Shown: positions 25,447 through 43,160 of the stretch, piece by piece
Layout: each line of letters starts with the position of its first letter
Numbering within the stretch: position 1 is the stretch's first letter
NCBI RefSeq assembly: GCF_032484785.1
Contig: NZ_JAUETR010000003.1
Coordinates: 248,001-312,000 of the forward strand
Length of the DNA stretch: 64,000 nt
Direction: 5' to 3'
DNA from: Bradyrhizobium sp. SZCCHNS1050
GTDB taxonomy: Bacteria > Pseudomonadota > Alphaproteobacteria > Rhizobiales > Xanthobacteraceae
Made by a program: the position numbers and the translations under genes
Notes under the pieces: generated by a model
Told to the model about the DNA's origin: nothing
The model's database searches: none
What the model saw: only the letters and a program-made list of their open reading frames with translations

Positions 25447-25982
25447 TTTGAGGGATGGTCCTGATGCTTGGGAGGCGCTCCGGCTGTTGTAGAAACAGCA
25501 GGGCCTGGAGGCAACCCGACGCCGGCCGGAGACGGGATTGCCGCCCGCTCGAGCGACGATCTGGCGTTCAGGCCAGAGATGACTCTGCACCGTGATCGCT
25601 CCGACGTCCGCCGTGGCGGCGTTGCACTTGCTGTCAACGAACTGAAAAATAAAGAAAAAATAGCCTTGGCATCGGCGGCCAACGGTCGAGGCGTTTCCCG
25701 GCGCGGCACGCGATCGGCGAGAGGGCTGGGCAACAGGCCGACAGAGTTTGAAGAAATCCGGGTAGAGCAGCTCCTGCAGCGGATCGTGCCTGTTGCGAAA
25801 AGCCGCCGGGACTCCTCGATCCGCGGGAGGTGACGGCCAGGGCCATGGTCGCACCTGCGTGGGATGCGGAGCCCCCGTCCGGGCGGGGGCCGGGACCGGA
25901 TTGCAAATGGACTCGCAAACCGGCGGCGGCTAGTTATTTGTCACCCTCCGGCTGGTCATTTTGCATGACGCTGAGCGCTTGA
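25447..25982. other. Gene-free divergent region
   Basis: A 536-bp stretch between the acyltransferase and the 137-residue gene with no supported gene. A GC hairpin (arms GCCCCCG and CGGGGGC, 25871-25890) is the only structure noted. Promoters of both flanking genes must lie here. Confidence 0.5.
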
Positions 25983-26396
25983 ATGAGGACGGAAGCCGCC
26001 TTGCCCGCTGCGCCATCTCAGCTCACCGATCAAACCGTCAACACCCAGCTGACGACGAATTGCAATGCGCAGGTGGCTGCAACGTTCGACACGAATGACA
26101 GCACCTGGGTGACCTTCTTTTTCAACGGTACGATCCCGTGCTGGAGAGCGCTGGTGTCGATTGGCGAAGTAGAGGTCGAACTGACCGAGGACATTGCAAT
26201 TGCAGGCATTGTCCTGCGCAAGGGGCTGACGGTGACCATGCACCCGATGGGTCGCTACTACACGGTCACGATGAGCGGGGAGATTGTCGATTCCGGAAAG
26301 GAGAGCAGCTTTACCGGATTCGTGCTCGGCTCGTTCATCCGGTCCGCAGCGATGAAGCGTGCGATGCAGATGCTTCGGAAACAAGTCAGCCGCTGA
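25983..26396 (+). CDS. Single-copy member of the beta-domain family in the giant-protein cluster
   Basis: A 137-residue protein with no signal peptide and no known family. Residues about 25-120 align with each of the two repeats of the next protein. Shared features are an N-terminal T..N..V..T segment, F.G.IP.W..LVS, ADI or EDI.I, RKG.T, YTVT and SGEIVD. It is thus a diverged single-domain relative with an added basic C-terminal helix (MKRAMQMLRKQVSR). It lies 222 bp before the main cluster and may have its own promoter. Confidence 0.65.
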   Translation: MRTEAALPAAPSQLTDQTVNTQLTTNCNAQVAATFDTNDSTWVTFFFNGTIPCWRALVSIGEVEVELTEDIAIAGIVLRKGLTVTMHPMGRYYTVTMSGEIVDSGKESSFTGFVLGSFIRSAAMKRAMQMLRKQVSR

Positions 26397-26618
26397 GCGG
26401 CGCCCGGCTTCGCCTGAAATGTAAACACCAGAATGTGACCGGGCGTTGGGGGAAGACTGTGATCTGGCCCGATTGACCACCGTCGCGAACCCTGTTACAC
26501 GCCACAACCTCTGATAGATTTCAATCATTGGTAGCTTATTCGATTTTCCATTCGTTTCAGCCGTGCCGGCAGTTGCGTACTGCGGGTTTTGATCTGTGTT
26601 TTATAAAAGGAGATAGCC
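26397..26618 (+). promoter_or_regulatory. Leader/promoter region of the giant-protein cluster
   Basis: This gap is notably AT-rich near its end and finishes with a strong ribosome binding site, AAAAGGAGATAG, 4 bp before ATG 26619. No confident -35/-10 pair could be assigned. It is the only sizeable gap before 42970, so it is the probable promoter of the four genes that follow. Confidence 0.45.
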
Positions 26619-27371
26619 ATGGCTCATCATGAAGGCGTTCGTTTTTCGGCTCCTGCTGTCGTTACTACTCCCACAAGCCCCAACACGGAGGTCGTCGCGA
26701 CGCCGACGGGCGATCAAAACAACACGACGCAGCTCGTGTTCGAGTATCAGGGGCGCATTCCGGTCTGGACGCCGGTGGTCTCGCAGGCACAACCTCAGGT
26801 CGTTTTGGCGGCTGACATCACGATCGGCGCAACGACTTGGCGCAAGGGCATTACGATCCAGTATGCGGCGCTGGGATCGACCCAGTACACCGTGACCATC
26901 ATCTCGGGCGAGATCGTGGACGATCGTGGGCTCTACTTGCTCCAGGGCGTGACGCTCGGCATCTTCCCGATCGGTTTGGATGTCAAGGCAGCGCCATCCG
27001 CGACCGCGCGGACCGAGGAATATCCGCGCGCGGCCTTCACGGCGCTGCCGACGGTGAACACCCCGACCAGCCCGAACAGCAACGTGGTGACGACGCCGAG
27101 CGGCGACACCAACAACACGACCTACGTCTCATTCCAGTATCAGGGACGAATTCCGGTCTGGACGCCGATCGTCTCGCAGTCCCAGATCACTGCGGTCCTC
27201 GCCGCTGATATCACGATCGGCGCGACGACGTGGAAGGCGGGCATCACGGTGCAATATGCTGCGCTGGGCTCGGCGCAATATACGGTGACCATCATCAAGG
27301 GCGACATCATCGACGATCGCGCCCTCTATTCACTGGCGGGCACCTTGCTCGGCATTTTCCCGATCGGGTGA
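26619..27371 (+). CDS. Two-repeat beta-domain protein, first gene of the compact cluster
   Basis: A 250-residue protein built of two tandem copies of one domain of about 95-100 residues (about 19-118 and 150-250). The copies share YQGRIPVW, VLAADITIGATTW and QYTVTII segments and both end LGIFPIG. The linker is Ala/Thr-rich. Alternating hydrophobic residues and Thr/Asn richness suggest beta-sandwich folds. There is no signal peptide or membrane segment. A third, diverged copy is the gene at 25983. Its stop is 7 bp before the 1207-residue gene. Function unknown; a structural or adhesive role is only a guess. Confidence 0.75.
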   Translation: MAHHEGVRFSAPAVVTTPTSPNTEVVATPTGDQNNTTQLVFEYQGRIPVWTPVVSQAQPQVVLAADITIGATTWRKGITIQYAALGSTQYTVTIISGEIVDDRGLYLLQGVTLGIFPIGLDVKAAPSATARTEEYPRAAFTALPTVNTPTSPNSNVVTTPSGDTNNTTYVSFQYQGRIPVWTPIVSQSQITAVLAADITIGATTWKAGITVQYAALGSAQYTVTIIKGDIIDDRALYSLAGTLLGIFPIG

Positions 27372-27378
27372 TACGAGC

Positions 27379-30300
27379 ATGGACGCGTCTGCGTCAGCGC
27401 AGTTCGAGCAGGTCGGCTCCTCTGCGATTTACGAGACCAGGGTTGCCGGCTCGGTTGGCTGGGCCGGCTACCTTCTCGGCACGGGCTCGTCTCTGCCACC
27501 GTTCATCAATTACGACGACTCGCTGAAGAAGTACGGTGGCAGTTATCTGTTTGCGACACAGCGGCCCGCCGATCTCGATCGGGATCCCGGCGGGTTCGCC
27601 GGGCGTGTCCGGGCCTATATCAGCAAGGCGACGCGCAATCGTGCTGTCGTCTGGCTCGCGTCGGCCAACCCGGTCGCGTTCGGCGACTTCGAGCGCTATG
27701 GCGTCTCCTTCATCAATCTGCCGCCGGTCTACCAGGTCTCGGGCAACCTGAACCTGTGGTTTGCCAGCAACGCCAAATTCTACATCCTCGACCAGAGCCG
27801 GATCGATATCGAGGGTGGGGCGCTGCGCCTGTCGGGCTCGGCGCTGAGTTCACCTCCGTTCATCGGCTTTTCGGGCAAGGGCGACAACCCGCTCGGCATT
27901 CGGCTTGCGCCGACCTCCAACAATCGCATCTACGCCTATGTGCCGTTCGGCGGCGCCAACACCGGTTGCGTAACCTTCGATGGGCTGCTCGATTCGAAGC
28001 AGGCGTTCGTCAGCCAGGGCTTGGAGCAGGGCATCCGCTACGTCATCAACAACAGCGCGACGACGTCGCTGCAAGCTGCGCAATATGCAGCCATGACGGT
28101 GGCGGCGTTGCCGTCGCAGCTTTCGATCGCAGGTGCCTTCGACCTCGGCGATCCGGCCAACCGCGTGATCGGCCGAGAGCAGCTCGAGCAGGGGTATCTG
28201 CGTTCGGGGTTCGCCATCAAGGGGGGGCCTGCGCTGACGAGCGAATTCCGCACGACCGGCGGGCGTGTCGTGCAACTGACGCCGCTCGGGGCTAGCAGTA
28301 CGGATACGGCGCCGGCGCTCGGAGCAGGGGGCTTCGCCTTTGCGACCAGCGCCGCGAAGACGGCCGCGGTCGACACTGGCACGACCTATCTCAGCCTGGC
28401 CGGCCACTATGCGCTCGGCGCCGATGGCAGTTCGGCGGGGCAGCTTGCGAAGCTGATGGGTGGACTATTCGGATCGGAGGCGCTCAGCTTCAAGGCGTAC
28501 GACGCCAGCCAGCCCGCAGCGCAGAACGATCGTCTCAACGCCATTCCCTCGAAGCCCGGCTACGCGCCGGTGTTCCCATTCGAGACGGCGGATCTCAACC
28601 GTCCCGCGAGCGGTGCCGTTGCGCCGCGCCTGACCGACGACCACCAGACCTCCTGGGTGACCATCGTCGCCGGCAGCGGGACCGTCGACTATCTGGCCGA
28701 GCCCGAGGGCAGCGCGATCTACGGTGCGGCCGCGGCCGGCGCCGCGAATGCGGAGATACTCCAATCCGCGCCGCCGTTCATGCCGCTCGCCCAGGGCAAC
28801 GACAAGACGTTCCCGCTGGCGCCTTATGGAGCTGCTGCGAGTAGCGGCCTCGATGGCGCGACGCTCGTCCAGTTCGAGAGCCAGATCGTGGCCGCAACCC
28901 GCAAGTCGCTGATCTCGAGCTATGGCAGCAAGACGTGGTCGGCGCGGGTGCAGGCGGCGCGGGCTCACGCGTTGCGCGGCACGCTGCCGGACGGCCCGAG
29001 CGCCGATGGGACGACGCCGCAGGGCTTCATCATCGAGCGAGATCCGACGACGGGGGCCTATCTGAAGGTCAGTATGGCGCAGTCGATCGACCGCGACGGC
29101 AACACCCTGCCATTCGCGCTATCCGCTCCCTCCCAGGCGATGCAGGACGCCTTGCAGACCAACCAGCTCTTTCTGGTCGCCGTCAATCCGGAGCCGTTCG
29201 GCACAGGCGCCCAGTTCGCCAACACCGTCAATATTGCGGGCTGGACCATGACCGCGGCGGTCGGCGCCGGCGCCTCGGCCACCGCCTACCGCAACGTGAT
29301 GATCATGAAGTTCTGCTCTGGCTCGTTGCTGGAGCGGGTCACGAATGCCAATCGCTGGACGTCCGCGGAGCAGTTCTCTTTGTTGCCCGGCACACCGCCG
29401 GTGACCGCTGCGCTGTCCTACACCGGCCTGTCGCAATGGCTACAGGACTACATCGCGGACGCCATCGCACGCTCGAAGGGACCGTCCGGCCCATTCTACG
29501 AGAATTTCGCGCGCATCGCCCAGGATCCGAACTGGACCGGCGTCATCGTGCTCGCGGCCGACCTCGGCCAGCGCGACATGCCGCCGGAGATTGCGGGGCT
29601 TGCCGCCGGCATCGACTTCACCCGCTTCAACGCTCATCATTTCGGCTTCACCGTCAGCCGCGTCACGGTCGACGGCCGGAGCGGTCGGATCACGATGCCC
29701 CAGGGCAATTCGAGCCTGTTCGGGCTGATCGACTACGAAGATCCGCGCTATGCGATGAACATCTCCAACGGCGTTGCGCCTGACGTGCCGGTGGCGGTGC
29801 AGATGAGCGGCGAGTTCGATTTCACCGTGCTGCAGCTGCAGTCGTTGTTCGAGAACGCCAGGCTGACGCGGTTCGACAGCCACGTCCAGCTCTCGGTCGC
29901 GGCGCTGTTCGGCGCGCCGGTGTCGCGGCTGTACTCGCGCGGCAAGCCGCAGCCCTTCACGGGAATCGTGCTCAAGGGCAGCTATGTCGATCAGGGCGGC
30001 CGCGGCGCCTATGTCTTCGAGCAGAACACGACCAACGTGCTGACCAGCCCGTCGAACGTGCTGCCGGCCGTGGCCTTCGACCGGGTGCAGTTCAACACGA
30101 TTGGCACCCAGGACCAGGGCGCCACGGTGGCGAGCAACTTCCTCGTCTGGGGGCAGCTCGATTTCACGGCGCTTCAGAGCACCATCGGAGAGACGCTCGA
30201 CCTGCTGTCGTTCGGCAGTCCGCCGGATACGCCCGAGGAGGCGCTCGGTGTCGGGCTCGCCTTCTCCGGCCTCGTCATCGGCATGACCTATCCGCAGGCG

Positions 30301-31002
30301 ACGCCCGGAGCCAAGAGGTTTGGGGTCGCGACCGGCAACCTGGCCTGGAATCTCAACGGCTCGACGATGCGCGACACCAGCCTGTTCCGCGGCTTCGCGC
30401 TGCAACTGAAGAGCTTCGTCAACGCGACCGGTGATCAGAAGCCGTCCGATCTCGGCTTCCTGCCGGTGACGTCGCAGCTCAACCTCACCGAACTCGAGGG
30501 GCCCTGGTTCGGGGTGGTCTACGACATCACGCTGGGCGGTCCGGGGGCGCTCGCCTCTGGCGTCGGCTTCCAGTCGCAGCTGCTCGCGGCATGGTCACCG
30601 GTCACCACCGGGTCGGATGCGCAGCACGCGGTCTTCATCGGCATGAGCCTGCCGGGCGCGGCGCCCGGCGCCAGCCTGTTCAGCATCCAGGGCGTCATCA
30701 AGGTTGCGGTCGGTGCGATCTCGATCCTGCGCCAGCCGGTTCCGACCGCAAAAGGGCGCATGCTGGCCGAGGACGGTCCGAAGTGGTTCTACTGCCTGCG
30801 GATCGACGATATCGCCATCAAGATATTCGGCATCGCCAAGCTGCCGCCGTCCGCCAACATCCAGTTCTTCCTGTTCGGCGATCCCGACAACACCGGCAGC
30901 CTCGGCTGGTACGCCGCCTATGTCGCCGACGACAATCCGGGCTGCGAGCAGTCGCTCGCATTCGCCGCACGCAAGCCCGAGCTTCAGGAGCCGTCATCAT
31001 GA
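27379..31002 (+). CDS. Orphan 1207-residue protein of the giant-protein cluster
   Basis: A 1207-residue protein of no family known to me. There is no signal peptide, no membrane helix, few Cys, and a high content of Gly, Ala, Ser and Thr. Many beta-type segments are present, such as YVPFGGANTGCVTFDG, and, in the C-terminal third, a series of strand-like stretches including WFGVVYDITLGGPGALASGV. The end has FYCLRIDDIAIKIFGIAKLP. It has no repeat copies of the small beta domain. Its stop overlaps the start of the EEP enzyme (ATGA), so the two are translationally coupled. It could be a scaffold or secreted surface protein. Confidence 0.75.
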   Translation: MDASASAQFEQVGSSAIYETRVAGSVGWAGYLLGTGSSLPPFINYDDSLKKYGGSYLFATQRPADLDRDPGGFAGRVRAYISKATRNRAVVWLASANPVAFGDFERYGVSFINLPPVYQVSGNLNLWFASNAKFYILDQSRIDIEGGALRLSGSALSSPPFIGFSGKGDNPLGIRLAPTSNNRIYAYVPFGGANTGCVTFDGLLDSKQAFVSQGLEQGIRYVINNSATTSLQAAQYAAMTVAALPSQLSIAGAFDLGDPANRVIGREQLEQGYLRSGFAIKGGPALTSEFRTTGGRVVQLTPLGASSTDTAPALGAGGFAFATSAAKTAAVDTGTTYLSLAGHYALGADGSSAGQLAKLMGGLFGSEALSFKAYDASQPAAQNDRLNAIPSKPGYAPVFPFETADLNRPASGAVAPRLTDDHQTSWVTIVAGSGTVDYLAEPEGSAIYGAAAAGAANAEILQSAPPFMPLAQGNDKTFPLAPYGAAASSGLDGATLVQFESQIVAATRKSLISSYGSKTWSARVQAARAHALRGTLPDGPSADGTTPQGFIIERDPTTGAYLKVSMAQSIDRDGNTLPFALSAPSQAMQDALQTNQLFLVAVNPEPFGTGAQFANTVNIAGWTMTAAVGAGASATAYRNVMIMKFCSGSLLERVTNANRWTSAEQFSLLPGTPPVTAALSYTGLSQWLQDYIADAIARSKGPSGPFYENFARIAQDPNWTGVIVLAADLGQRDMPPEIAGLAAGIDFTRFNAHHFGFTVSRVTVDGRSGRITMPQGNSSLFGLIDYEDPRYAMNISNGVAPDVPVAVQMSGEFDFTVLQLQSLFENARLTRFDSHVQLSVAALFGAPVSRLYSRGKPQPFTGIVLKGSYVDQGGRGAYVFEQNTTNVLTSPSNVLPAVAFDRVQFNTIGTQDQGATVASNFLVWGQLDFTALQSTIGETLDLLSFGSPPDTPEEALGVGLAFSGLVIGMTYPQATPGAKRFGVATGNLAWNLNGSTMRDTSLFRGFALQLKSFVNATGDQKPSDLGFLPVTSQLNLTELEGPWFGVVYDITLGGPGALASGVGFQSQLLAAWSPVTTGSDAQHAVFIGMSLPGAAPGASLFSIQGVIKVAVGAISILRQPVPTAKGRMLAEDGPKWFYCLRIDDIAIKIFGIAKLPPSANIQFFLFGDPDNTGSLGWYAAYVADDNPGCEQSLAFAARKPELQEPSS

Positions 31003-32414
31003 CGCGGATCCTGTTCTGGAATATCGAAAACTTCTCGGTCAACAAGATCTTTTCGGCCTCGATCAAGCGACAACGCGGGCATGGCGGTCTCAACGACATG
31101 CAGAGCGCGATCCAGCGCCGCGCGGTGATCAATGCCGTGCTGGCGGCCGTGCAGCCGGACATCATCGTCATCATCGAGGTGAGCTCGGGCGACAATGCGC
31201 CCAACGCTCTGGCGAGCCAGACCGGCGGCATCAATGCGCTCGCCATGGTGCAGTTCGGGCTCAACAACCCCGCCACGATGGTGGCGGGCGGATGGAACGC
31301 CGTGCCGCCGCTCTACACCGGGGTCGGTGGGCGCTCAGAGACGGTCGGCATTCTCTATCGCCGCACCAACACCGCTGGCACCCTCAACCGCTACTTCACC
31401 GGGCCCAACATCTGGACCGGCGGGCATGGCGGCGTGTCGGTGCCGCCGGGCGGCGGCGTCGCCATGCCGTACAATGGCATGGTGGTGCCCCTCGGTGCCG
31501 TCAACGTCAATGGAATGCTGGTGCCTCCGGGCCTGGGCGGAGTGCGCCAGATCCCTGCGGGTGCCCAGCACAATGGCGGCCTCAACGAGGACGTCGTCGC
31601 GGCGCGGATCGCCTTCACGACCACGCTCGGCGCTCCTGTTGCCTTTGCCGGGCTGCGCGAGCCGTTCATGGCGACGTTCACCGAGGCCGATAATCTCGGC
31701 GTCGTGCAGCGAGACCTCACCATCTTCGGCATCCATTCCCCGCCGAACAATCCGGCGGCGGCGAACTACATCACCACGCTGTCGACGATCAACGACGTCG
31801 TCGGCGCTCTGGGCGTAAACGAGACGCGGGTGATCGGCGGCGATTTCAACGTCAACCTGTTCGCCGTCAATGGTACCGCCTCGGGCCTCTATAATCCGCT
31901 CACCGGCGGTCCCGGTGCCTACACGCTGCTCGTCAGTCCGACGGCGGTGGGCGTTCCTGTCAATCTCGACCAGTACAAGGGTTATTTCTCCACCCATATC
32001 CGCGGCAAGGACAAGACGGCGGCGTCCAAGTTCCTCTGGTCCAACGGCGGCGGGCCGGGACAGAGCTTCTATCCCGGCTACGGCTATGTCGGCTCGAACT
32101 TCGTCGCCGCGCCGTTCTACTCGATCGACAACGTCCTGGTCTGGCCGCACAACGGCATGCACAACTATCAGACCACGATCATGAACACGGTGACCGGCAC
32201 GCCGATGAACGGGGTCATGGCGCCGCCGGACAATCCTCCCCCCGGTGCGATCGCTTTGGCCAACCAGTTCACCGCGCCGCCGATGGGGTGGCCGGGCGCA
32301 CCGACGGCGGCGAACTATCCGGGGATCGGCGGTGCCGGAAATCTGACCGGCTGGAGCAACTACGGACGCGTTCGCAACACCAGCGATCACTTCGGCATCT
32401 CTGCCGACATCTGA
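30999..32414 (+). CDS. EEP-fold (endonuclease/exonuclease/phosphatase) protein
   Basis: A 471-residue member of the EEP superfamily, which cleaves phosphodiester or phosphomonoester bonds using Mg. All key motifs are visible: RILFWNIENF (Asn8), DIIVIIEVSSG (metal Glu60), FGIHSPPN near 243 (catalytic His), GGDFNVNL near 283 (Asp and Asn) and TSDHFGISADI at the C-terminus (Asp-His). Between the Glu and His motifs there is a large Gly/Pro/Val-rich insert (about residues 125-200), so the protein is longer than typical members. There is no signal peptide. Substrate unknown: nucleic acid, lipid or nucleotide. Confidence 0.85.
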   Translation: MTRILFWNIENFSVNKIFSASIKRQRGHGGLNDMQSAIQRRAVINAVLAAVQPDIIVIIEVSSGDNAPNALASQTGGINALAMVQFGLNNPATMVAGGWNAVPPLYTGVGGRSETVGILYRRTNTAGTLNRYFTGPNIWTGGHGGVSVPPGGGVAMPYNGMVVPLGAVNVNGMLVPPGLGGVRQIPAGAQHNGGLNEDVVAARIAFTTTLGAPVAFAGLREPFMATFTEADNLGVVQRDLTIFGIHSPPNNPAAANYITTLSTINDVVGALGVNETRVIGGDFNVNLFAVNGTASGLYNPLTGGPGAYTLLVSPTAVGVPVNLDQYKGYFSTHIRGKDKTAASKFLWSNGGGPGQSFYPGYGYVGSNFVAAPFYSIDNVLVWPHNGMHNYQTTIMNTVTGTPMNGVMAPPDNPPPGAIALANQFTAPPMGWPGAPTAANYPGIGGAGNLTGWSNYGRVRNTSDHFGISADI

Positions 32415-32428
32415 GGGAGCGCCGGCTG

Positions 32429-35400
32429 ATGAGCGCTATCGACAATCTCCGCGCCGCTGTCGAAGCCGCCGCCGGCGACACCGCCTTCGCGCTCGATGCC
32501 GCCTTCCTGACGGCGGGCCTCGCCGATCCCGCCGTGAAGGTCCCCGCCGACTACGACGCCTGGCTGAGCCAGGCCTTCTTCCTCAAGGCCGCGGCCGACT
32601 TCAAGGTGACGGTGGCAAAATCCGATGTCGGGCCCGTCGAAGGGACGGCGTTCACGGTGCAGTCGGCGACGATCCCGTTCATCGGCGCCGCGACCCCGCT
32701 GGCCGCGAAGGCCACGCTTGTGTTCACCGTGGACGGCGACCAACTGATCGTGCAGGCCGAGGCGACGCCGTCGAACTGGACCTGGACCAGCAGCTTCGCC
32801 TTCATGGGCGGCTTCCCGTTCAATCAGTTCGGCACCCTGAAGAACGTCAGCTTCGTGTTCTCGACGGCGACCGGCACCTACCCGTATGGCGACTCCGCGG
32901 GGCGTGCCGTGAGCGGCGGCGCGGTGCAGAATTTCGTTGCCAAGGTCGCTCTGCCGGATGTCGCCAAGCCGTTCCTGCTGCTGTTTCCCGGCCTCAACGC
33001 GCCGACCGGCGATCTGCTGCTGAGCGGCGCGCTCAACATGGGCATCTTCAACGGCGAGACGGTGCTGTTCCCGCCGGGGCAGTTGCGGGCCGCGATCCAG
33101 GACGGCACGTTCAAGCTCGCATCGCAGTTCACGGTCAGGGATCCGAGCCTGGCTCTGACCATTCCCGCGCCCGATGGCGCCGATGAGGTCGACGGCGTGC
33201 TGGTGCTGGCCGATCCCGCCGATCCGGATGCCGGAGATCAGGCGCCGACGCTCGCGATCTCCTCGCAGTTCGACGTCGGCAGCACCGGCTCCTATCAGCT
33301 CGACGTCGAGATCACACCCGGCGCCGATGCCAACTATTCGGTGGCACTTGCCGTCGTCGAAGGCGGCGCGCCGCTGACGCCGGCCACGGTGATCGAGGTG
33401 ATGGGCGGCAATGGCGGCTATCTCGCCGCGACTCCCGATGTGCTGCAGCAGTTCCTCGCCTTTGTCGGTCTCAACGGCTTCTCGATCGCCGGCACGCTCG
33501 GCCGCTCGCCGACGATCACGGCGGTCTCGATCGAGATCGGCAGCTCGAAGGATACGAGCTGGCAAATCCTGCCGCCGACCGGGGTGCTCGACTTCAAGAT
33601 CACGAGCTTCGCGCTGCAATGGTCGATGGCCTATCCGTTCGACGGCACCAAGCGGCAACAGACCTACGACTTCACGACCGAATTCGTACTGGCGCCGAGC
33701 GTCTTCAAGGGGCCCGACGGCGAGGGCGACGGCGTGTTCACCGTCCAGTTCACCTCCGCGAAGCAGTTCTTCGCATCCTTCGCCGGGACCGCGAAGCTGA
33801 GCGACTTCCTGACGGCACTGTCCGGCGGTGCCGTCGTGCTCGACGTCGAGAATGTCGGCGATTTCGAACTTGGCGACATCGCGGTCGCGGTCGACTACGG
33901 CGCGCAGAGCTTTCAGTTCGACGCCGGCTTCAGCCTCACGCTCAATCTGCTCAAGATCAACAACCAGCCGATCCTTGCCGTGCGAGAGGGGACGGTCTCG
34001 ATCGCGGCGCAGACTCCGACGCAGACGCCAGACGGGGGCAATGCGACGACGCTGCTGCGGGCGGCGCCGCTGCCGATGCTCCGGACCTCGCGAGGGGGCG
34101 CGCTGCAAACCGCCTCGCAGACGCAATGGAAGTCGAGCGTCGGAGGCTTCCTCGATGTCGGCCCGTTGCACACCAAGGTCAGCGTGACCTATGACGGGTT
34201 CGAAACGCCGAAGCGGTGGGACCTCGCCGCCTCGCTGGAGGAATCGCTCGAGGTCTCGGACCTGATCAACCAGTTCTTTTCGCCCGGCAGCGCCTACGGT
34301 TTCCCGAGCTTCCTGCCCGGCGACCTCATCATCTCCGAATTCGCGATCACCGCGACCATTCCGGCCGAGCAGGGCGAGCTGAAGACGAGCTACGACATCA
34401 CCGTCGGCTTCAGCTGGACGTTCGCCTTCGGCGATCAGACCGTCGGCATCGATCCGGCGCGGCTCGGCGTCAGCTATGACGGCCAGAAGCCGGCCCAGCA
34501 GCAGTTCTCCGGCTTCGCGCAAGGCACCTGGATCTACTCGGCGATCAACCTCAAGCTCACGATGGGCTATGAGTTCAGGACGACGGAGGCGGGCTCCAAC
34601 AACATTCTGTTCGTCGAGTGGGAGGGTTTTCGAGCGGATTGGGAGAGCGGCAAGGAGCTGGTCACGTTCAGCCTCAAGGGCTGGAGCATCGGCTCGCTGG
34701 TGCAGGCGCTGGTGCGTACGCTCGGCAATCCTTACTTCACGCTGGATTCGCCATGGGACCTGCTCAACCAGATCTCGCTCGATGCGCTGCGTGTCAACGT
34801 CTCGCTCAAGAGCGGCGAGAGCTTCTCGCAGCGCCTGTCGGCCAGCTACGAGCTGTCGAGCCCGATCAATCTCGGCTTCATCAGCATCACCGCGCTGACC
34901 TTCCGTCGCGGCACCGACGGAAAGGTGACGCTCGCCATCGAGGGCTCGAGCCCACTGGTCGCCGACGATCCGGCGTTCAAGAATCTGCTCGATCCCGCCA
35001 AGGGGCAGGACGTGCAGAACCTGCCGTCGGTGCCCGGCCGGGGCGAGGAATGGTTCAAGCTCTTCCTGCTGGTGCTTGGGCAGCGCATCGGCATCACCGG
35101 CCATTCCAGCTTCAACAGTACCAAGGAGGTGATCTGCGCACTGCAGTCTGTCCCCAGCACGACGGGCAAGATGAATCCGGTCGATCCCAATGCGGACGAC
35201 GGCGGGACGCCCGGACTGCCCTATTACGACCAGTCCAACGACTGGCTCATTGCCGGGCATCTCGGCCTGATGAAGGTGGCCGGCGCCTGGTCGATCGATG
35301 CCATGCTGGTGTTCAATGACCCGAATCTCTACGGCCTGCGGCTGGCACTCGCCGGCGAGAAGATGGGCGGGCTCGCCAACCTCGTCGTCGACATCCTCTA

Positions 35401-38400
35401 CAAGAAGATCACCGACGACATCGGCGTCTACCAGATCGACTTCACCTTCCCGGACATCATCCGCAACCTCAATTTCGGTGCGGTGTCGATCACGCTGCCG
35501 CAGCTCGGGATCAAGGTCTACACCAACGGCGATTTCTTCATCGACATCGGCTTCCCGTACAATCTCGATTTCCGTCGCTCCTTCTCGATCTCGGTGATCG
35601 TGTACGGCGTGCCGGTGCTGGGCGCGGGCGGCTTCTACATCGGAAAACTGTCTAACGCGACCTCGACCAAGATCCCGAAGACCAACCTCGGCACTTTCGA
35701 TCCGGTCATCGAGTTCGGCATCGGGTTGCAGCTCGGCCTGGGCTACAATTTCGAGAAGGGGCCGCTGAAGGCGGGCTTTGCGCTCACCGTCTTCGGCATC
35801 GTCGAAGGCGTCGTGGCGCCGTGGCATCCCTATGACCCCGCGCGCACGCTGGCATCGCGCGCCAGCAGCAGCGCGCTGCAGAGCGACTATTATTTCAAGC
35901 TGTCGGGAACGGTCGGCATCATTGGCCTGCTGTACGGCAGCGTCGATTTCGCGATCATTTCAGCCTCGGTCAATGTCAAGATCGTGCTGTCGATCCAGCT
36001 CACCTATGAGAGCTATCGCGAGATTCCGGTGGTCGCCAACGCGAGCGTGACGATCAGCCTCAAGGTCAAGATCAATCTCGGCCTGTTCTCGATCTCCATC
36101 AGCCTGTCGTTCTCGGCCCAGGTCTCTGCGACCTTCGTGATCGGACAGACCAGCACGGCGCCATGGGAGGTTCAGGGGGCACGCGCCGACGCGCTGCTGA
36201 TGCAGCGGGCTCACGCGCGCGGACCGGACGCGGCCATGCGGCTGGCGCGCAGCTTGAAGCCGCGACCGAAGCGGCTCGGGCCCGCTAGCGCCCGCCGGAT
36301 GGGCCTTGCCGCCGCAGATGGCAACAAGCCGAAGCTGTCGCTGATGGCGGGCGCGCAGTACACCGTGCTTGCTCCGGAGGCAGCCACCGATGCAGCCTCG
36401 AACCAGGGGGCATTCGTGCTCCTGCTCGCAATGGACGCGCCGGATGCCGCGGCGAGCGCGCCGTCCACCACCAAGACGTCCTTCGACGTGCTGGCCGAGG
36501 TCTACTTCCCCTGGATCATCGACGCACTGGGAAACGAGAGCGGGGATGCGGCCGAGCTCGCCGAGACGCTGGCCATGTCGGTGACGCTCACCCAGCTCGA
36601 GGCCTATGTCGCGCGTCTCGCCGACACGGCCGATCCGTTCCTGTCGATCAAGGGCCTGCTGCAGTTCCTGGCCGACGGTTTCACGCTCGACATCTTCAAT
36701 CCGGCGACGGCGCAATCGTCGGGGCTGAAGACCAAGCTCGATGCCGGTTCGGTACTGTTTCCGGTGTTCGACGGATTGAAGCTGCAGGTCCCCGGCATGT
36801 CCGGTGGCGAGACCGCGCCGATTGCGTTCGAGACCTACACCACGGCCACGCCCGGCTATGCGACCGCGGTCAGCAAGATATTCGCGCAGGTCGCCGCGAA
36901 CATCGAGGCCCAGAACAAGGAAACGCGCCGGCTTGCCGCGGAGACCGATACGAGCTCGGCGGAGTCGATGGCGGCCCTGGTGTTCGTCGACACCTTCACG
37001 CTGATCGCGCGCCAACTGCTCCAGGCCGCGGCCGACGCGCTGCAGAGCTATGCCTATCCGCTGACCCCGACGAGCAGCATCGGTGCCATTCTCGATGAGC
37101 TCAACGGGATCGCCGGCAACGCCTTGACGATTGCGGATATCGTACAGCCCAACGTCGACCATGCCTTGGGGGCCGGGCTGTCGCTGCATATCGACGGCCT
37201 CGAATATGTGGTGCAGAGCGGGGACACCCTGCAAGGCATCGCCGGCCGCTATTCCGATGCGGCGTTGCCGCCGCGCTGGACCACGACGCCAGACCGCCTG
37301 ATCGTGTCCAACCGGGCCCGTCACATGCTGCAGGGCGGCGTCGTCCTGCTGCTCACCAACAGCCATGGCCAGGAGCAGATCTGTGTGACGCGGCAGGGCG
37401 ACAGCTTCGACGACATCGCGCTGCAGCTTGGCGCGATCTCGATCGACGCGCTCGCTGCACAGAGCGTGCTCTACGGCGTCGCCGGCCTGCTGCAGCCGAC
37501 CTTGCCGCTCGCGATCTGGCCGATCGCCTACAGGACCGCAGGGACCTCCGGCCCGTCATCCGATACCTTGTCGACGGTCGCGAGCCTGTTCCAGACCACT
37601 GCGGTTGCAGTGGCGGACGCCAATCGCGGCGTCGCCGGCCTGTTCTCGGTGCAGGCGGAGCGCGGCCTGCTCACGGTCGGCAGTCTTCAGGCCCTGTCGG
37701 TCGGCGCGTTGTGGTCGGCCATCGCGGCCACGGGCCAGGTCGGGCAGACCGCCGGCATGGTCTCGCGCTTCCTGGTCTATGGATTGCGGCTGCCGGTCCG
37801 GGACGGACTGACCCTGTCGCCTGCGTTCCTCTATCCGAGGACGCAATCGGGCTACGGCGTCTATCAGCTCACGGGCCAGCAATTCCCGACGCCCAGTTCT
37901 GCCACGAGCTACAAGGTCGGCTTCGCACGCGAGACTCAGAGCCACGGCGTCCCGCTCGATTTCATCTTGCTGAACGACACCACCGACCTCAGCATGGACG
38001 TCGATCTGAGCCAGGCCTATGCCGCGCTGAACGTCGTCGTCAGCTGGGCCAGGGCGCCGGGCAATTTCGTCCCGAGCCCGACGTTTGCGGCGCTGCCGCT
38101 CGCCGAGCGTCAGCCGCGGCCGTTTACCGCCAGCGGCTACGCGCGCTGGTCGAGCGGATCCGTCGCGAGCCTGTTGGCTCTGACGAACCGCAGCGGCGTG
38201 GCCGCGGCGGCCGATGCCGGCGCGCAGGTGCAGCCGACGCTGTGGAGCCTGCCGCCGGCGCAGACCAATCTGGTCGCCACGCGGGAGCAGTCGATCCGCG
38301 CCGTCATGCCGGATCTCCGCTCGACCTTCGCGCTGCTGCCGAAGTTCCAGCCGCAGACCGGGCGCAGCAATCCCGCGACCGGACGCACCGACTATGCGGA

Positions 38401-41400
38401 CCTGGGGCGCTGGGCCTGGTGCACGCGGCTCGATATTGAGATCAAGCGTCTGCCGGACGCGGCGGCGCTGGCTGCTCAGGGCACCGGCGCAGGCGATCTG
38501 CCGAGCGGTCCGGCATCGGCGCCGTCGCTGCCGTTCGTCTATGAGCTCGTCGGACCCAGCTCGGAGGACGCGGTGCGGCTGCAGCGCATCCTGACCGCCA
38601 TGGATGCGCTGGGCGAAGGCATCGCCTCCGCCGTCTTCCTGCTCTACAACCAGTCCGGACCCGGCGCGCCGATGCTGGTGACGCCTGCGGACGCCGACTT
38701 CCTCGCCTTTATCACCCAGACCAACCTGTCGACCGAGACCAATCCTGCGGCGGCGCTGCGCCTGATGCTGAGCGCCGAGGACGCTCCGCCGCGCGGCATT
38801 GCCAATTCGCCGGCGCAGTTCATCCGCCTGATGTGGGAGCTCAGCACGGTCCGCAGCGGCGGCTACTATCTCTACTACGAGAACGTCGAAAGCGAGGAAG
38901 GCCTGCCGGCGGCCGTCTTCGATTCCTCCGGCTCTGGCATCGTGACAATGGTCGTGACGTTCGCGGCGCAGGGCAGCGAGTCCTTCGGCACCACGCTTCC
39001 CGACTTCGTCAACGCCTTCGTGACGACCGACGCTGTCGATCCGCAGAGCGATCTGGTACAGACGGTGTCGCTCGCCTCGACCGCCCAGACGGCACCGGTT
39101 GCGGCGGGAGCATCGCTCGATGCGCTCGCGGCGATCTACGGCCCCGGGCCCGGGCGGATCGCCGAGGTCAACGCGACCAAGCCGCTCGCCGCGGGCGCGC
39201 TGGTGCCGATCGTGGGCGCGGTGCGCCAACTGACCGACGCGGATCTGGTTCGCGGCACCGGGGGGGCCATCGACGCGCAGGCCACGCTCGACAAGCTCGC
39301 CAGACTGTTCTCAGCCGGTGCAGTCCATCCGATCACCGGCCAGGACATCGCCACATTCAATCCACAAGTCGCTGTTGCGCTGGCCGCCGTGTTCTACATC
39401 CCGCCGCTGGCCTATCAGGTCAGTTCCTCGGCCGCGCCCGGGATGAGCTTTGCCAGCATGGCCTCCTATTACGGGTTGGATGTCGACCTGATCGCCCGTG
39501 GCGCCAGCGCAGCGCCCGGGCTGTTCCCGGTCAATGCCGTGCTCGATCTCGATCCGCAGCTGTTCTCCCTGCGCGACCAGTTGCCACCGCAGAACATCGG
39601 GTTCTCGTTGACGCGCGACAATCTCGGCCTTCCGCCGGACGATCCAGCGGCGCCGGACTTTGCCAAGAAGACGATGTATCAGCTCTACACCTCGCTGGCC
39701 GCGGGACTCGCGGGCAACGTCTTCTACAAGGCTACTCCGCTGGGCATGCCGTTCGGTCCCCAAGACCATGACGACGATGAGTCCAGCGCGTTCGAGAGCC
39801 ATGCGCGCTCGGCGCGGACGCGCGGCGACCGCCTGGCGCAGGTCGCGATCGCCGATCTCGACTATCGCCAGTCCATCGGCATTGGGGCGCAGTTCGCGCT
39901 GGTCAACGCCGCGCCGGACCCGTTTGATCCGGATCTGCCGCCGAAGGCGGCCAATCCCTATCTCGGCGTCGGCACCATGGCGCAGGTCGCGCTGCAATGG
40001 CGCGATATCTTCGGCAACACCACGGTGACACCGTTCGAGGCGCCGCCGCAAGGGTACCGCGGCGCGCTCAACGGGGCTGCGGTGTCGATGCTGTACCGCG
40101 ATGAGCTGATCGGGCTGGGGTCCTGGATCAATACCAATGCCAGCTACAGCTATGACGCGGCGGGCGGTGCCGCGTTCAAGCTCGCATTGTCCCTCAACGC
40201 CGCCGCCTATGCCGGACCGGACGGAGCGGCGCGGGCCGCCGACGATCTCTCGCTCTACACCCGAATCTACTATCAGCTGCATCAGGATTATTCCGCCGAT
40301 GTCGCCGTTCCCGTGCCGGGCGTCTCCGGTAACGCGGTGGCGATGCGGCTGTCGAATTCGCTGATGGCAAAGCCCGATGTGGATCTTGGCGATGCGCAGG
40401 CGGACATCATTCGCGGCTATGTGCGCGCGTGCGTGCTGTATCTGAAGCTCGTGACGCGCGGCCAGGCGCCCGCAGCCCCGGCTGTGACCTTGTCGCTTCC
40501 GGTCGACGTCAATGCGATCGCCGCCGGCAACATCCTCGAGCTCGATGTCACGCTCACGTTCAGCCGCAATCCGCTGCTGGTCGACCCGGCGGTGGCGGCG
40601 TTGCAGGGCGGCACCGGCGTGGCCGCGGCGATCCTGCCGCGTGCCGACGGCGACGGCAATGTATCCTACACGGAGTTCAGCAAGATCGTCGAAACGGTCT
40701 TCGTCACCGCCGACTGGTATCTCAAGGTCGGGCAGGGCCTGTCCCGCGACGGTGAGGATGCGGCCGACGGCGCTCAGCAGCTCTGGGCCGTCCGCTTCGG
40801 CAAGGCGGCCGGGCAGGGCATCCATTTCAAGCTGGGCACGTCACCGAGCTATTTCGCGCCGAAGCCGATCGCCAAGGCGCTTGCCAGCGGCGATGCGACG
40901 ATCACGCGCTATGACAGCGGCGACACCGACACGCTGCATCTCGACGGTGTCGATCTGAACCAATGGTTCCAGAGCGCGCTGGATGCCATCGATCAGTTCC
41001 TGTCGGCCGACTACGCGCCGCACGCGTTCATCCTCGACCGGATCGACGGGGTGACCGATCCGCTCAAGGACGGTTCGCTGGGAAGCGTGCTGTCGACCAA
41101 GGAATCGCTGGCCGATACGATCAGCCTGAAGACGCTGCCGGTGCTGTCGACCAGCGCGGGCGATCCTTCAACCGGATTCGCCGCCAGCGAGAAGCTGCGC
41201 CAGCAGCTGCTCAATCAGCTTGGCGCAGCCTATCGGGCCGGTGCGGCCGTCGTGTTCGGATTGACCGAGGTGACCGGCGGAGGCGATAGCAACCCGGCCG
41301 GTCCGCCGAACCTCTACGGTCAGCCGGGCGGCAGCATCAAGGGCGCCGCGGACAATCAGAATTTCACGCTGACGCCGACGCGCGTCCCGCTCGGCGAAGT

Positions 41401-42970
41401 CTACGATCCCGCCAGCAAGACCTGGTACGATTCGCGGCTGGCCTTCGTGTTCGCCACCAAGAACGTCGTCGACCAGGCCTATGTGCCGCTCGAGCTCACG
41501 CTCTCGCTCACTCATCTCGAATTCGAGCGGCGTACCGTCCCCGGAATCGACGGCTATGTCGATTCGCGATGGCTCGCCTTCGTCAACGGGCCGTTCAGCT
41601 ATCCGCTGGGGACGCAGGTCACCAACATTCCCGTGGTCAACCGCGATCTGCCGACGCCGCCGACGGTCTCCGCGCAGCAGGCGCGGCAGCTCACCGGCGA
41701 GGGCACGACCGATCCATCGAAGCTGAATGCCTGGGGTTATTCGTTCGACTACCTCTATCAGCAGGCGGCAGCCGACGCAGTGTCCTGCACGATGGAGTTC
41801 AACCGGCCGACCGAGCCGACGCTGCGCGGCTCGGCCAGGTTGAGCGGCGAGCCCGACCTGTTCACCGCGCTCGCTCAATTCGTCACCAACTATCCGGCGA
41901 TCCTGCGCGACCTCAACCAGTATCTGGTCGGCATCGATGGCGCTGAGCCGGATCCGGCGACACTGGCCGCCGCGCGCAAGGCGACCGCCGCCTTTGCGCT
42001 GGAGACCAGGCAGATCGCGGATGCCTATGTGCGGGAGACGGTTGGAGCCGCCAAGCTCGCGACGGCGCCCGCGCATGTGATCGTGAAGTTTCTGTCGACG
42101 CTCGACAGCACCAGCGACGGGCACGCGCGCACCAATCTCGTCAACATCACCATCGATGGAACGGCGGCGAGCTGGAATGCGGCGGCCAACACGATCTCGA
42201 ACGGCACCACCACGCTTCCGGCGCCTGCGATCGCGATTGCACCCGAGCTCTATACGCCCCAGGCCGTGCCTCCGGCAGAGCTGCCCGTCGGCGTGCAGAT
42301 CGCCTACGTCTATGCGCGTCAGGTCGACGGCAAGACGGTTTATCTTGGCGAAGAGGAGGCACGTGGGTTGCCGGCCCGAACCGTTTCGATCGCTCCGCTC
42401 GACGTGCTGCTATACCAGAGCGGCTGGGCGTCGGTGTTCGTGCAGCGCAATCTCGCGCTGTTCCCGCTGGCAGATCTCAAGACCACCAGCACCAACCCGG
42501 CGTTCCTGTTCCAGACGCCGGAGGTGCGGTTTGCGTCCACGGTGGTTCCGCAGCTGAACTACACGGCGTTCTCGCTCGACGCGATGTCGGGGGCGACCGG
42601 TGACCTCGATGCGCGCCTGACGACGTTCTTCGCGGGGCTCTATGCCGGCGGCAATGGCGGCACCAGCGACGAGGTCGCGATGCAGGGCATGTACAGCTAT
42701 GAGATCGTGGCCGGCCAGCCGTCGATCCCGCGCGTACGGCTGCCGATCAACCTGCTGACGCCGACCCCGTCAGCGGTCGATCCGGGCGTGAAGCCGCCCT
42801 TCGTGGCCCCGTTCGCGCAGATGATCGATACGTGGCGGGCGACGACGAAGCCAACGACGTCGGGCCGTGCCCGCGTCGAGATCGAGCTGAAGGTCTTCGG
42901 TGGGGTCGGCGATGCGACGCAGCCGTTGATCCAGGTCGGCCGGCTCACTCACGAGGTCACGACCGCTTGA
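32429..42970 (+). CDS. Giant 3513-residue protein with LysM-like repeats
   Basis: The largest gene in the window. Residues 1 to about 1250 are beta-rich with amphipathic strands, including PVLGAGGFYIG and a run of alternating-hydrophobic segments near 1180-1240. LysM-like units follow: VVQSGDTLQGIAGRYSD (about 1593), CVTRQGDSFDDIALQLG (about 1651), a third near 1711, and a second group near 2220-2375 with PVAAGASLDALAAIYGPGPG. The C-terminal third has no recognised motif. No signal peptide or membrane helix is seen. ATG 32429 follows GGGAG, 14 bp after the EEP stop. The beta-rich part recalls giant proteins labelled DUF6603, which could not be verified. Confidence 0.8.
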   Translation: MSAIDNLRAAVEAAAGDTAFALDAAFLTAGLADPAVKVPADYDAWLSQAFFLKAAADFKVTVAKSDVGPVEGTAFTVQSATIPFIGAATPLAAKATLVFTVDGDQLIVQAEATPSNWTWTSSFAFMGGFPFNQFGTLKNVSFVFSTATGTYPYGDSAGRAVSGGAVQNFVAKVALPDVAKPFLLLFPGLNAPTGDLLLSGALNMGIFNGETVLFPPGQLRAAIQDGTFKLASQFTVRDPSLALTIPAPDGADEVDGVLVLADPADPDAGDQAPTLAISSQFDVGSTGSYQLDVEITPGADANYSVALAVVEGGAPLTPATVIEVMGGNGGYLAATPDVLQQFLAFVGLNGFSIAGTLGRSPTITAVSIEIGSSKDTSWQILPPTGVLDFKITSFALQWSMAYPFDGTKRQQTYDFTTEFVLAPSVFKGPDGEGDGVFTVQFTSAKQFFASFAGTAKLSDFLTALSGGAVVLDVENVGDFELGDIAVAVDYGAQSFQFDAGFSLTLNLLKINNQPILAVREGTVSIAAQTPTQTPDGGNATTLLRAAPLPMLRTSRGGALQTASQTQWKSSVGGFLDVGPLHTKVSVTYDGFETPKRWDLAASLEESLEVSDLINQFFSPGSAYGFPSFLPGDLIISEFAITATIPAEQGELKTSYDITVGFSWTFAFGDQTVGIDPARLGVSYDGQKPAQQQFSGFAQGTWIYSAINLKLTMGYEFRTTEAGSNNILFVEWEGFRADWESGKELVTFSLKGWSIGSLVQALVRTLGNPYFTLDSPWDLLNQISLDALRVNVSLKSGESFSQRLSASYELSSPINLGFISITALTFRRGTDGKVTLAIEGSSPLVADDPAFKNLLDPAKGQDVQNLPSVPGRGEEWFKLFLLVLGQRIGITGHSSFNSTKEVICALQSVPSTTGKMNPVDPNADDGGTPGLPYYDQSNDWLIAGHLGLMKVAGAWSIDAMLVFNDPNLYGLRLALAGEKMGGLANLVVDILYKKITDDIGVYQIDFTFPDIIRNLNFGAVSITLPQLGIKVYTNGDFFIDIGFPYNLDFRRSFSISVIVYGVPVLGAGGFYIGKLSNATSTKIPKTNLGTFDPVIEFGIGLQLGLGYNFEKGPLKAGFALTVFGIVEGVVAPWHPYDPARTLASRASSSALQSDYYFKLSGTVGIIGLLYGSVDFAIISASVNVKIVLSIQLTYESYREIPVVANASVTISLKVKINLGLFSISISLSFSAQVSATFVIGQTSTAPWEVQGARADALLMQRAHARGPDAAMRLARSLKPRPKRLGPASARRMGLAAADGNKPKLSLMAGAQYTVLAPEAATDAASNQGAFVLLLAMDAPDAAASAPSTTKTSFDVLAEVYFPWIIDALGNESGDAAELAETLAMSVTLTQLEAYVARLADTADPFLSIKGLLQFLADGFTLDIFNPATAQSSGLKTKLDAGSVLFPVFDGLKLQVPGMSGGETAPIAFETYTTATPGYATAVSKIFAQVAANIEAQNKETRRLAAETDTSSAESMAALVFVDTFTLIARQLLQAAADALQSYAYPLTPTSSIGAILDELNGIAGNALTIADIVQPNVDHALGAGLSLHIDGLEYVVQSGDTLQGIAGRYSDAALPPRWTTTPDRLIVSNRARHMLQGGVVLLLTNSHGQEQICVTRQGDSFDDIALQLGAISIDALAAQSVLYGVAGLLQPTLPLAIWPIAYRTAGTSGPSSDTLSTVASLFQTTAVAVADANRGVAGLFSVQAERGLLTVGSLQALSVGALWSAIAATGQVGQTAGMVSRFLVYGLRLPVRDGLTLSPAFLYPRTQSGYGVYQLTGQQFPTPSSATSYKVGFARETQSHGVPLDFILLNDTTDLSMDVDLSQAYAALNVVVSWARAPGNFVPSPTFAALPLAERQPRPFTASGYARWSSGSVASLLALTNRSGVAAAADAGAQVQPTLWSLPPAQTNLVATREQSIRAVMPDLRSTFALLPKFQPQTGRSNPATGRTDYADLGRWAWCTRLDIEIKRLPDAAALAAQGTGAGDLPSGPASAPSLPFVYELVGPSSEDAVRLQRILTAMDALGEGIASAVFLLYNQSGPGAPMLVTPADADFLAFITQTNLSTETNPAAALRLMLSAEDAPPRGIANSPAQFIRLMWELSTVRSGGYYLYYENVESEEGLPAAVFDSSGSGIVTMVVTFAAQGSESFGTTLPDFVNAFVTTDAVDPQSDLVQTVSLASTAQTAPVAAGASLDALAAIYGPGPGRIAEVNATKPLAAGALVPIVGAVRQLTDADLVRGTGGAIDAQATLDKLARLFSAGAVHPITGQDIATFNPQVAVALAAVFYIPPLAYQVSSSAAPGMSFASMASYYGLDVDLIARGASAAPGLFPVNAVLDLDPQLFSLRDQLPPQNIGFSLTRDNLGLPPDDPAAPDFAKKTMYQLYTSLAAGLAGNVFYKATPLGMPFGPQDHDDDESSAFESHARSARTRGDRLAQVAIADLDYRQSIGIGAQFALVNAAPDPFDPDLPPKAANPYLGVGTMAQVALQWRDIFGNTTVTPFEAPPQGYRGALNGAAVSMLYRDELIGLGSWINTNASYSYDAAGGAAFKLALSLNAAAYAGPDGAARAADDLSLYTRIYYQLHQDYSADVAVPVPGVSGNAVAMRLSNSLMAKPDVDLGDAQADIIRGYVRACVLYLKLVTRGQAPAAPAVTLSLPVDVNAIAAGNILELDVTLTFSRNPLLVDPAVAALQGGTGVAAAILPRADGDGNVSYTEFSKIVETVFVTADWYLKVGQGLSRDGEDAADGAQQLWAVRFGKAAGQGIHFKLGTSPSYFAPKPIAKALASGDATITRYDSGDTDTLHLDGVDLNQWFQSALDAIDQFLSADYAPHAFILDRIDGVTDPLKDGSLGSVLSTKESLADTISLKTLPVLSTSAGDPSTGFAASEKLRQQLLNQLGAAYRAGAAVVFGLTEVTGGGDSNPAGPPNLYGQPGGSIKGAADNQNFTLTPTRVPLGEVYDPASKTWYDSRLAFVFATKNVVDQAYVPLELTLSLTHLEFERRTVPGIDGYVDSRWLAFVNGPFSYPLGTQVTNIPVVNRDLPTPPTVSAQQARQLTGEGTTDPSKLNAWGYSFDYLYQQAAADAVSCTMEFNRPTEPTLRGSARLSGEPDLFTALAQFVTNYPAILRDLNQYLVGIDGAEPDPATLAAARKATAAFALETRQIADAYVRETVGAAKLATAPAHVIVKFLSTLDSTSDGHARTNLVNITIDGTAASWNAAANTISNGTTTLPAPAIAIAPELYTPQAVPPAELPVGVQIAYVYARQVDGKTVYLGEEEARGLPARTVSIAPLDVLLYQSGWASVFVQRNLALFPLADLKTTSTNPAFLFQTPEVRFASTVVPQLNYTAFSLDAMSGATGDLDARLTTFFAGLYAGGNGGTSDEVAMQGMYSYEIVAGQPSIPRVRLPINLLTPTPSAVDPGVKPPFVAPFAQMIDTWRATTKPTTSGRARVEIELKVFGGVGDATQPLIQVGRLTHEVTTA

Positions 42971-43083
42971 GGCCGTCGGTCCCGGCATCGAGACTGCGGC
43001 GGTCGCCGGAGATGATCTCGACATGCCGCCCGCAGCGTCGGGTGGTACGGGCTCAAGGGTCGAGTGCTGGGTCGGGTGATGAC

Positions 43084-43160
43084 TGGCGCGCTCGGAGAGA
43101 TTCGAACTCCCGACCCTCGGAATCGAAATCCGATGCTCTATCCAGCTGAGCTACGAGCGC
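43084..43160 (-). tRNA. tRNA-Arg (anticodon TCG)
   Basis: Reading the minus strand gives a full cloverleaf. The acceptor arms are GCGCTCG and CGAGCGC, the D arm is GCTC..GAGC and the anticodon stem is TCGGA/TCCGA around loop TTTCGAT (anticodon TCG, decoding CGA). The T arm is GGGAG TTCGAAT CTCTC. The CCA end is encoded (43084-43086), total 77 nt. The 3' end faces the giant-protein cluster. Confidence 0.97.

What the first reader, a model, noticed from the sequence alone, without database searches (positions are those of the whole stretch)
25983..42970. Compact cluster of orphan proteins with an EEP-fold enzyme and a 3513-residue LysM protein
A two-repeat beta-domain protein, a 1207-residue orphan, an EEP-fold enzyme and a 3513-residue protein with LysM-like units are packed on one strand with gaps of 7 bp, a 4-bp overlap and 14 bp, which points to one transcript. 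A single-domain relative of the first protein lies 222 bp upstream. None has an evident signal peptide. I know no described system with these parts. Hypotheses: an intracellular assembly that delivers the EEP enzyme to a cell wall or phage, or a large secreted complex exported by a non-Sec route.
Basis: partly seen in the sequence, partly recalled or inferred. Interest (0 to 1): 0.85.

Follow-up and report, generated by a model that had tools for sequence, protein, structure and literature searches.

The report
Widespread giant-protein cluster with interchangeable enzyme
A compact set of genes for two very large, unknown proteins and a small enzyme turns out to be one conserved unit found in very different bacteria, with the enzyme swapped for another kind in some of them, which suggests an undescribed enzyme-carrying machine.

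Summary
In detail: gene positions, 7-bp gap, 4-bp overlap, 14-bp gap, EEP enzyme, giant LysM protein. It is more than a local oddity. A genome scan with the giant's core returned 247 relatives, of which the best 80 loci were kept, from 11 phylum-level groups. The 1207-aa family lies upstream of the giant in 78 of the 80; the other two lie near contig starts. An EEP protein fills the gap between them in 48 of 80; the presumed catalytic positions are conserved in the 28 sequences aligned. In other loci the same place holds a metallo-beta-lactamase-fold protein or a third, unassigned domain, separate or fused to the giant. The 1207-aa protein and giant core match nothing convincing in Pfam, NCBIfam or PDB sequences; the 1207-aa protein gives a confident AlphaFold model (pLDDT 89) without a PDB fold match at E 0.001. 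The giant core holds long strands of alternating hydrophobicity in 39 of 39 aligned rows. I read it as a horizontally spread, undescribed envelope or extracellular complex with an exchangeable enzyme. Co-occurrence, tight spacing and enzyme exchange are shown; export, membrane contact and target are inferred. In Bradyrhizobium it lies beside a tRNA-Arg that carries an island in a relative.

The parts
25983..26396 (+). single-domain small beta protein (137 aa)
   Evidence: ORF; similar to both halves of the next protein; same family upstream in some other loci
26619..27371 (+). two-repeat small beta protein (250 aa)
27379..31002 (+). 1207-aa protein of a conserved unassigned family ('P3'); confident AlphaFold model of residues 1-1200 without PDB match at E 0.001
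30999..32414 (+). EEP-fold enzyme (471 aa), presumed catalytic positions conserved in 28 aligned sequences
32429..42970 (+). giant protein (3513 aa): N-terminal beta modules, conserved core (about aa 950-1283), LysM, long C-terminal part
35705..36142 (+). stretch of the giant core (aa 1093-1238) predicted as six 18-22-residue strands, most with alternating hydrophobicity
43084..43160 (-). tRNA-Arg(tcg), 113 bp from the end of the giant gene, 3' end facing the cluster; its end is duplicated around an island in a relative

Best explanation
The cluster encodes one large beta-rich complex: the 1207-aa protein and the giant act as a pair (P3-like and core-like parts share one frame in two distant relatives), the enzyme between them is its exchangeable working part, and the small beta proteins are partners, exported in some lineages. 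The complex acts at or outside the cell envelope: LysM holds cell-wall glycan, the amphipathic long-strand core inserts into a membrane or binds lipid, and the enzyme (an EEP phosphodiesterase of the DNase I / sphingomyelinase C type here) acts on a target cell or on the envelope. Shown: conserved co-occurrence, tight spacing, enzyme exchange, conserved presumed catalytic residues, conserved strand pattern. Inferred: export, membrane contact, carriage of the enzyme by the giant, the target.
For: P3 upstream of the giant core in 78 of 80 genome loci; the two misses start near contig ends. EEP between them in 48 of those 80 plus Nostoc; 4-bp overlap with the P3 stop in 19 of 49 EEP loci. Pairwise distances of P3, EEP and core rise together over 25 dereplicated loci (Spearman 0.78-0.89; 0 of 2000 permutations as high). 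Enzyme kind changes at least 5 times on the P3 tree among the 50 rows with an assigned enzyme. MBL-fold enzymes in the same place in L062, L063, L071 (Pfam), and by motif one with a signal-peptide-like start fused to the giant (L092). Signal-peptide-like starts on 3 of 3 MBL proteins scored and on 28 of 125 small upstream ORFs. P3 and core in one frame in G005 and G036. Alternating strands in 39 of 39 rows, window included.
Against: No signal peptide seen on the window's own proteins, and P3 and giant score for one in 2 of 83 and 2 of 88 cases, mostly spurious, so the route out is unexplained. The giant model has pTM 0.44 and its fold search never ran, so 'membrane strands' rests on sequence pattern; a lipid-binding groove or another large beta fold could look alike. 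The only control for that pattern is composition shuffles. Branches with high support force only 2-3 enzyme changes per kind, and the tree has long branches and uneven composition. MBL is not more clustered on the tree than shuffles. The EEP family is conserved rather than fast-changing, unlike typical toxins. LysM is a single Pfam match in the window protein. The loci were chosen by similarity to the core, so rates hold for that subset.
Confidence: 0.4

Rival explanations
1. An envelope maintenance or polymer-processing machine of the producing cell itself: the scaffold is anchored by LysM to the own cell wall and the enzyme trims phosphodiester polymers or lipids there.
For: EEP enzymes are conserved, not hypervariable; LysM; exported small partners in some lineages.
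Against: Very patchy distribution (3 of 398 Pseudomonadota genomes, own included; 4 of 60 relatives, own and one dropped weak match included) and a tRNA-side location in Bradyrhizobium suit an accessory device better than a housekeeping function.
Confidence: 0.2
2. An extracellular scavenging device: the complex captures nucleic acid or phospholipid and the enzyme releases phosphate or nucleotides for uptake.
For: EEP profile matches DNase I and sphingomyelinase C; MBL-fold alternative; mostly environmental taxa by name.
Against: The third, unassigned kind of slot domain does not clearly fit. Whether uptake genes recur in the flanks is open: one search grouped flanking ORFs but did not assign functions.
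Confidence: 0.17
3. An intracellular anti-phage defence complex with exchangeable effector enzymes.
For: Patchy, beside a tRNA that carries an island in a relative, exchangeable hydrolases.
Against: No convincing PADLOC match (one at E 0.066); signal-peptide-like starts on MBL enzymes and small partners; LysM.
Confidence: 0.07
4. Unrelated genes kept together by chance within an island.
For: Island-like setting in Bradyrhizobium.
Against: P3 followed by the giant in loci of 11 phylum-level groups.
Confidence: 0.01

Closest known systems
Tc (ABC) toxin complexes (recalled)
   Same: Very large proteins plus an enzyme part, patchy in environmental bacteria
   Different: No Tc, Rhs or SpvB Pfam family among matches up to E 1 for the five window proteins; P3 model without PDB fold match at E 0.001; enzyme is a separate gene or at the N-terminus of the giant
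Polymorphic toxin systems (only the listing and abstract start of PMC3482391 seen; the rest recalled)
   Same: A shared carrier combined with exchangeable enzyme modules
   Different: A whole enzyme gene is exchanged rather than a C-terminal domain; EEP module conserved across phyla; immunity genes not identified, but flanks were not function-scanned
EEP superfamily: DNase I, bacterial sphingomyelinase C
   Same: Presumed catalytic positions conserved; profile match to both
   Different: Window protein is 471 aa against 260 aa (DNase I) and 306 aa (sphingomyelinase C) chains; partners are P3 and giant. Loci were chosen by the giant, so whether such EEP proteins occur without it was not tested
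LysM cell-wall binding proteins
   Same: LysM match in the giant
   Different: LysM is a tiny part of 3513 residues; core and tail unassigned

Membership tests
EEP superfamily | Asn, Glu, His, GDFN, Asp and SDH catalytic positions (roles recalled) | tested here: met
   E60, H246, N284, D377, H464 invariant and N8, D282, D463 at 90% or more in 28 sequences, one of them (L038) trimmed at its start
EEP superfamily | profile match to known members | tested here: met
   sphingomyelinase C, DNase I; Pfam alone below cut-off
EEP superfamily | phosphodiesterase activity | not testable with these tools
   needs assay
Tc toxin complex | TcA, TcB or Rhs sequence families | tested here: not met
   no such match up to E 1
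Tc toxin complex | shared fold with a solved Tc part | tested here: inconclusive
   no match at E 0.001 for the 1207-aa protein; the giant's fold could not be searched
Polymorphic toxin | variable C-terminal toxin domain | tested here: not met
   enzyme is a separate conserved gene or an N-terminal fusion
Polymorphic toxin | immunity gene | tested here: inconclusive
   enzyme and giant genes are adjacent with little room between; small upstream proteins and flanks not assigned a function
Known anti-phage defence system | PADLOC family | tested here: not met
   only one match, E 0.066, on the 250-aa protein
Extracellular contractile injection system | sheath, tube and baseplate genes | tested here: inconclusive
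   none among the five window proteins; flanks of other loci not family-scanned
LysM protein | LysM domain above gathering score | tested here: met
   25.7 against 20.9 bits
GT-B glycosyltransferase (third slot kind) | sequence or fold match | tested here: inconclusive
   motif resemblance recalled; no relevant Pfam match, PDB profile search best E 0.063 to unrelated capsid proteins; no fold made

The most novel reading that the evidence does not exclude
A new class of horizontally spread enzyme-delivery nanomachine: a two-protein giant beta particle with a membrane-inserting long-strand core and wall-binding LysM part that carries an exchangeable enzyme (EEP, MBL-fold or a third kind) into or onto target cells.
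Probability: 0.25. Interest if true: 0.95.

Novelty: categorically new. Interest (0 to 1): 0.78.

Why it matters
A 16-kb unit of mostly unassigned proteins, kept over thousands of residues from Bradyrhizobium to Acidobacteria, cyanobacteria and Bacteroidota, has no name in the libraries searched. Its exchangeable enzyme makes a clear prediction: the carrier is generic and the enzyme defines the effect. If it delivers enzymes it would be a new weapon or symbiosis tool; if it works on the own envelope it would be a new envelope machine. Either way P3 is a well-predicted chain of 1200 residues without a PDB fold match at E 0.001.

Tried and rejected
Rejected: chance clustering; defence system as first choice; phage origin; known Tc or polymorphic toxin. 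A family name I recalled for the giant core (DUF6603) is not supported: no such Pfam match in the window proteins, the relatives scanned or the fused relatives, and no paper in the library holds the term. The third slot domain looked like a GT-B glycosyltransferase by motif, but no search supports it. P3 and the 101-1290 part of the giant are not detectably homologous to each other (hhalign). I first read the B. aeschynomenes copy as moved to another site because homology ends at both cluster ends; reading the ends and finding the tRNA end twice on that contig 39.9 kb apart points instead to an integrase-bearing element lying between tRNA and cluster. A match in G034 (E 8.5e-4) has no giant core beside it and was dropped.

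Paper searches gave no title or abstract start that describes the cluster; one search listed 15 of 64 papers and 8 of 16, seen as listings only. One paper on Mycetohabitans rhizoxinica (PMC3102044) was seen by passages: LysM 0 occurrences in its main text.
Full report
What is in the window. The window lies in a 7.6-Mb genome of 6 contigs and its nearest named relative in the scan is Bradyrhizobium aeschynomenes (98% over the giant core; 88.6% DNA identity over 25901-42980). Pfam gives LysM on the giant above the curated cut-off, Exo_endo_phos on the 471-aa protein just below it, and nothing for the 1207-aa protein; NCBIfam, PADLOC and PHROGs give nothing convincing.

Relatives. tblastn against 72,556 plasmid records found 7 with the 1207-aa family (P3), in Mycetohabitans, Azospirillum, Paenibacillus, Nostoc, Lysinibacillus, Tistrella and Embleya; phage records gave none. 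In all 7 a giant-like protein lies downstream of it. A scan of 84,980 species genomes with the giant core gave 247 relatives, of which the best 80 were kept; record titles place them in Pseudomonadota, Acidobacteriota, Cyanobacteriota, Bacteroidota, Planctomycetota, Actinomycetota, Bacillota, Spirochaetota, Chloroflexota, Aminicenantes and SAR324. The viral collection gave 1. It is nevertheless rare: 3 of 398 Pseudomonadota genomes, 4 of 199 of the order, 4 of 60 relatives with P3 as query (one of them, G034, dropped), the own genome counted in each.

Co-occurrence. With profile searches on + strand stop-to-stop frames of 88 loci (7 plasmid, 80 genome, 1 viral), P3 lies upstream of the core in 86; the two without (L037, L093) have little contig upstream. 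EEP lies between them in 49 of 88, namely 48 of 80 genome loci and Nostoc. The loci were chosen by similarity to the core, so the rates hold for that best subset. In the 49 EEP loci the gap P3 to EEP has median 3 bp (19 of 49 with the 4-bp overlap) and EEP to giant 18 bp; 48 of 49 lie within -20 to 60 and -20 to 80 bp. Starts were picked by script. The giant aligns with 16 relatives at 33-60% identity over 3513 residues. Distances of P3, EEP and core correlate over 25 loci kept from 47. Shared descent adds to such a correlation, but the P3 tree mixes phyla (for example a cyanobacterium beside an acidobacterium), so transfer of the set is likely.

The exchangeable enzyme. Where EEP is absent the place can hold an MBL-fold protein: L062, L063 and L071 by Pfam (two of the three reach the curated score of PF00753), Tistrella by motif only (no Pfam match), Niastella L092 fused to the giant by motif. 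A third domain, 18 rows aligned, is a separate gene in L072, L073, L091 and L093, the front part of a gene in Mycetohabitans, or the N-terminus of the giant; it resembles GT-B enzymes by recalled motif, but Pfam and PDB searches do not support that. Some loci have no recognised enzyme. On a FastTree tree of 61 P3 rows, enzyme kind needs at least 5 changes among the 50 rows assigned at that time (30 EEP, 16 third kind, 4 MBL); well-supported branches alone force 3, 3 and 2 changes for the three kinds. Eleven rows were unassigned then; three of them (L064, L082, L092) I later assigned by reading and did not recount. The program warned of long branches and uneven composition.

The EEP protein. 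In 28 aligned sequences (of 41 extracted by script, plus the window) the positions that I recall as catalytic in this superfamily are invariant or at 90% or more, and the profile matches sphingomyelinase C and DNase I. The three best rows of that search are chains named SAKe6, matched only at profile positions 65-108 with no stretch passing on its own; I set them aside as chance. The enzyme should be active; its substrate is unknown.

P3 and giant structure. P3 (first 1200 aa, 54 sequences) models at pLDDT 89.2 and pTM 0.82. Foldseek against the PDB finds nothing at E 0.001; the best row has E 0.014 and TM-scores under 0.1, so I call the fold unmatched. Giant residues 101-1290 model at pLDDT 77 and pTM 0.44: local structure usable, global arrangement not; its fold search never ran. 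Self-comparison shows repeated modules before the core (best off-diagonal probability 94.5). Residues 1093-1238 hold six strands of 18-22 residues, four or five of them strongly alternating in hydrophobicity. Over residues 1040-1250 the alternation exceeds composition shuffles in 39 of 39 rows, window included (lowest z 3.7). That fits membrane hairpins or a lipid-binding groove. In G005 and G036 P3-like and core-like parts are in one frame, which supports a physical pair.

Export. With a home-made signal-peptide rule, not a trained predictor, 3 of 3 MBL proteins scored positive (Tistrella's was not in the set), as did 28 of 125 small upstream ORFs (the set includes unrelated ORFs), 2 of 88 giants, 2 of 83 P3 and 1 of 41 EEP proteins; the P3 and EEP cases and one giant look spurious, the other giant is the MBL fusion. 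So components are probably exported by Sec in some lineages, while the large parts need another route or release.

Setting in Bradyrhizobium. A tRNA-Arg gene lies 113 bp after the giant. In 20-kb stretches of 6 relatives, window sequence matches up to 20.7-22.5 kb and again from the tRNA or just after it; nothing between, cluster included, is matched, and none of these 6 genomes has a P3 match. ARAGORN finds the tRNA in 5 of the 6; in 3 (L098, L099, L100) it lies in the opposite orientation relative to its neighbours, so the region has also been rearranged. The left neighbour, an acyltransferase gene, has only distant matches in relatives, while the gene right of the tRNA has a close match in all 25 genomes of the genus searched, own included. 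In B. aeschynomenes the cluster is followed by a 25-base copy of the tRNA end without a tRNA, and an intact tRNA-Arg lies 39.9 kb away on the same contig beside a phage-type integrase; I infer a genomic island inserted between tRNA and cluster. The own genome has the motif once. No integrase or repeat tied to the cluster itself was found in the window (ten ORFs scanned, one transposase-like).

Verdict. Real, conserved, undescribed in the searches made, function open. I score the system as categorically new by parts and the delivery reading as plausible but unproven.

Noticed in passing
window 43084-43160 and G606 (B. aeschynomenes) contig 54: A 39.9-kb stretch bounded by an intact tRNA-Arg and a 25-base copy of its end, with a phage-type integrase beside the tRNA, in the relative only; its cargo was not read.
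   Followed up: partly
L098, L099, L100: In three Bradyrhizobium relatives the tRNA-Arg is in the opposite orientation relative to neighbouring genes compared with the window.
   Followed up: no
L008, L010, L011 upstream genes: Large 1100-2000-aa proteins, two of them with repeated Ig or fibronectin-like units by eye and all with a similar C-terminal part by eye, directly upstream of the 1207-family gene.
   Followed up: no
L012 (G005): A single-frame relative of P3 plus giant core beside OmpA-like, AAA ATPase and trypsin-like genes; possibly a sister system.
   Followed up: partly
L007 18085-19065: Protein reading like a trypsin-type protease (by eye) directly before the P3 gene in Paenibacillus; the two annotated genes share one base.
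   Followed up: no
L007, L010, L069, L073, L095: A giant-like tail is a separate gene right after the core-bearing gene, so core half and tail half are separable.
   Followed up: partly
window 8815-10431: Transposase-like gene (HTH_38 and weak integrase core) in the left part of the window.
   Followed up: no
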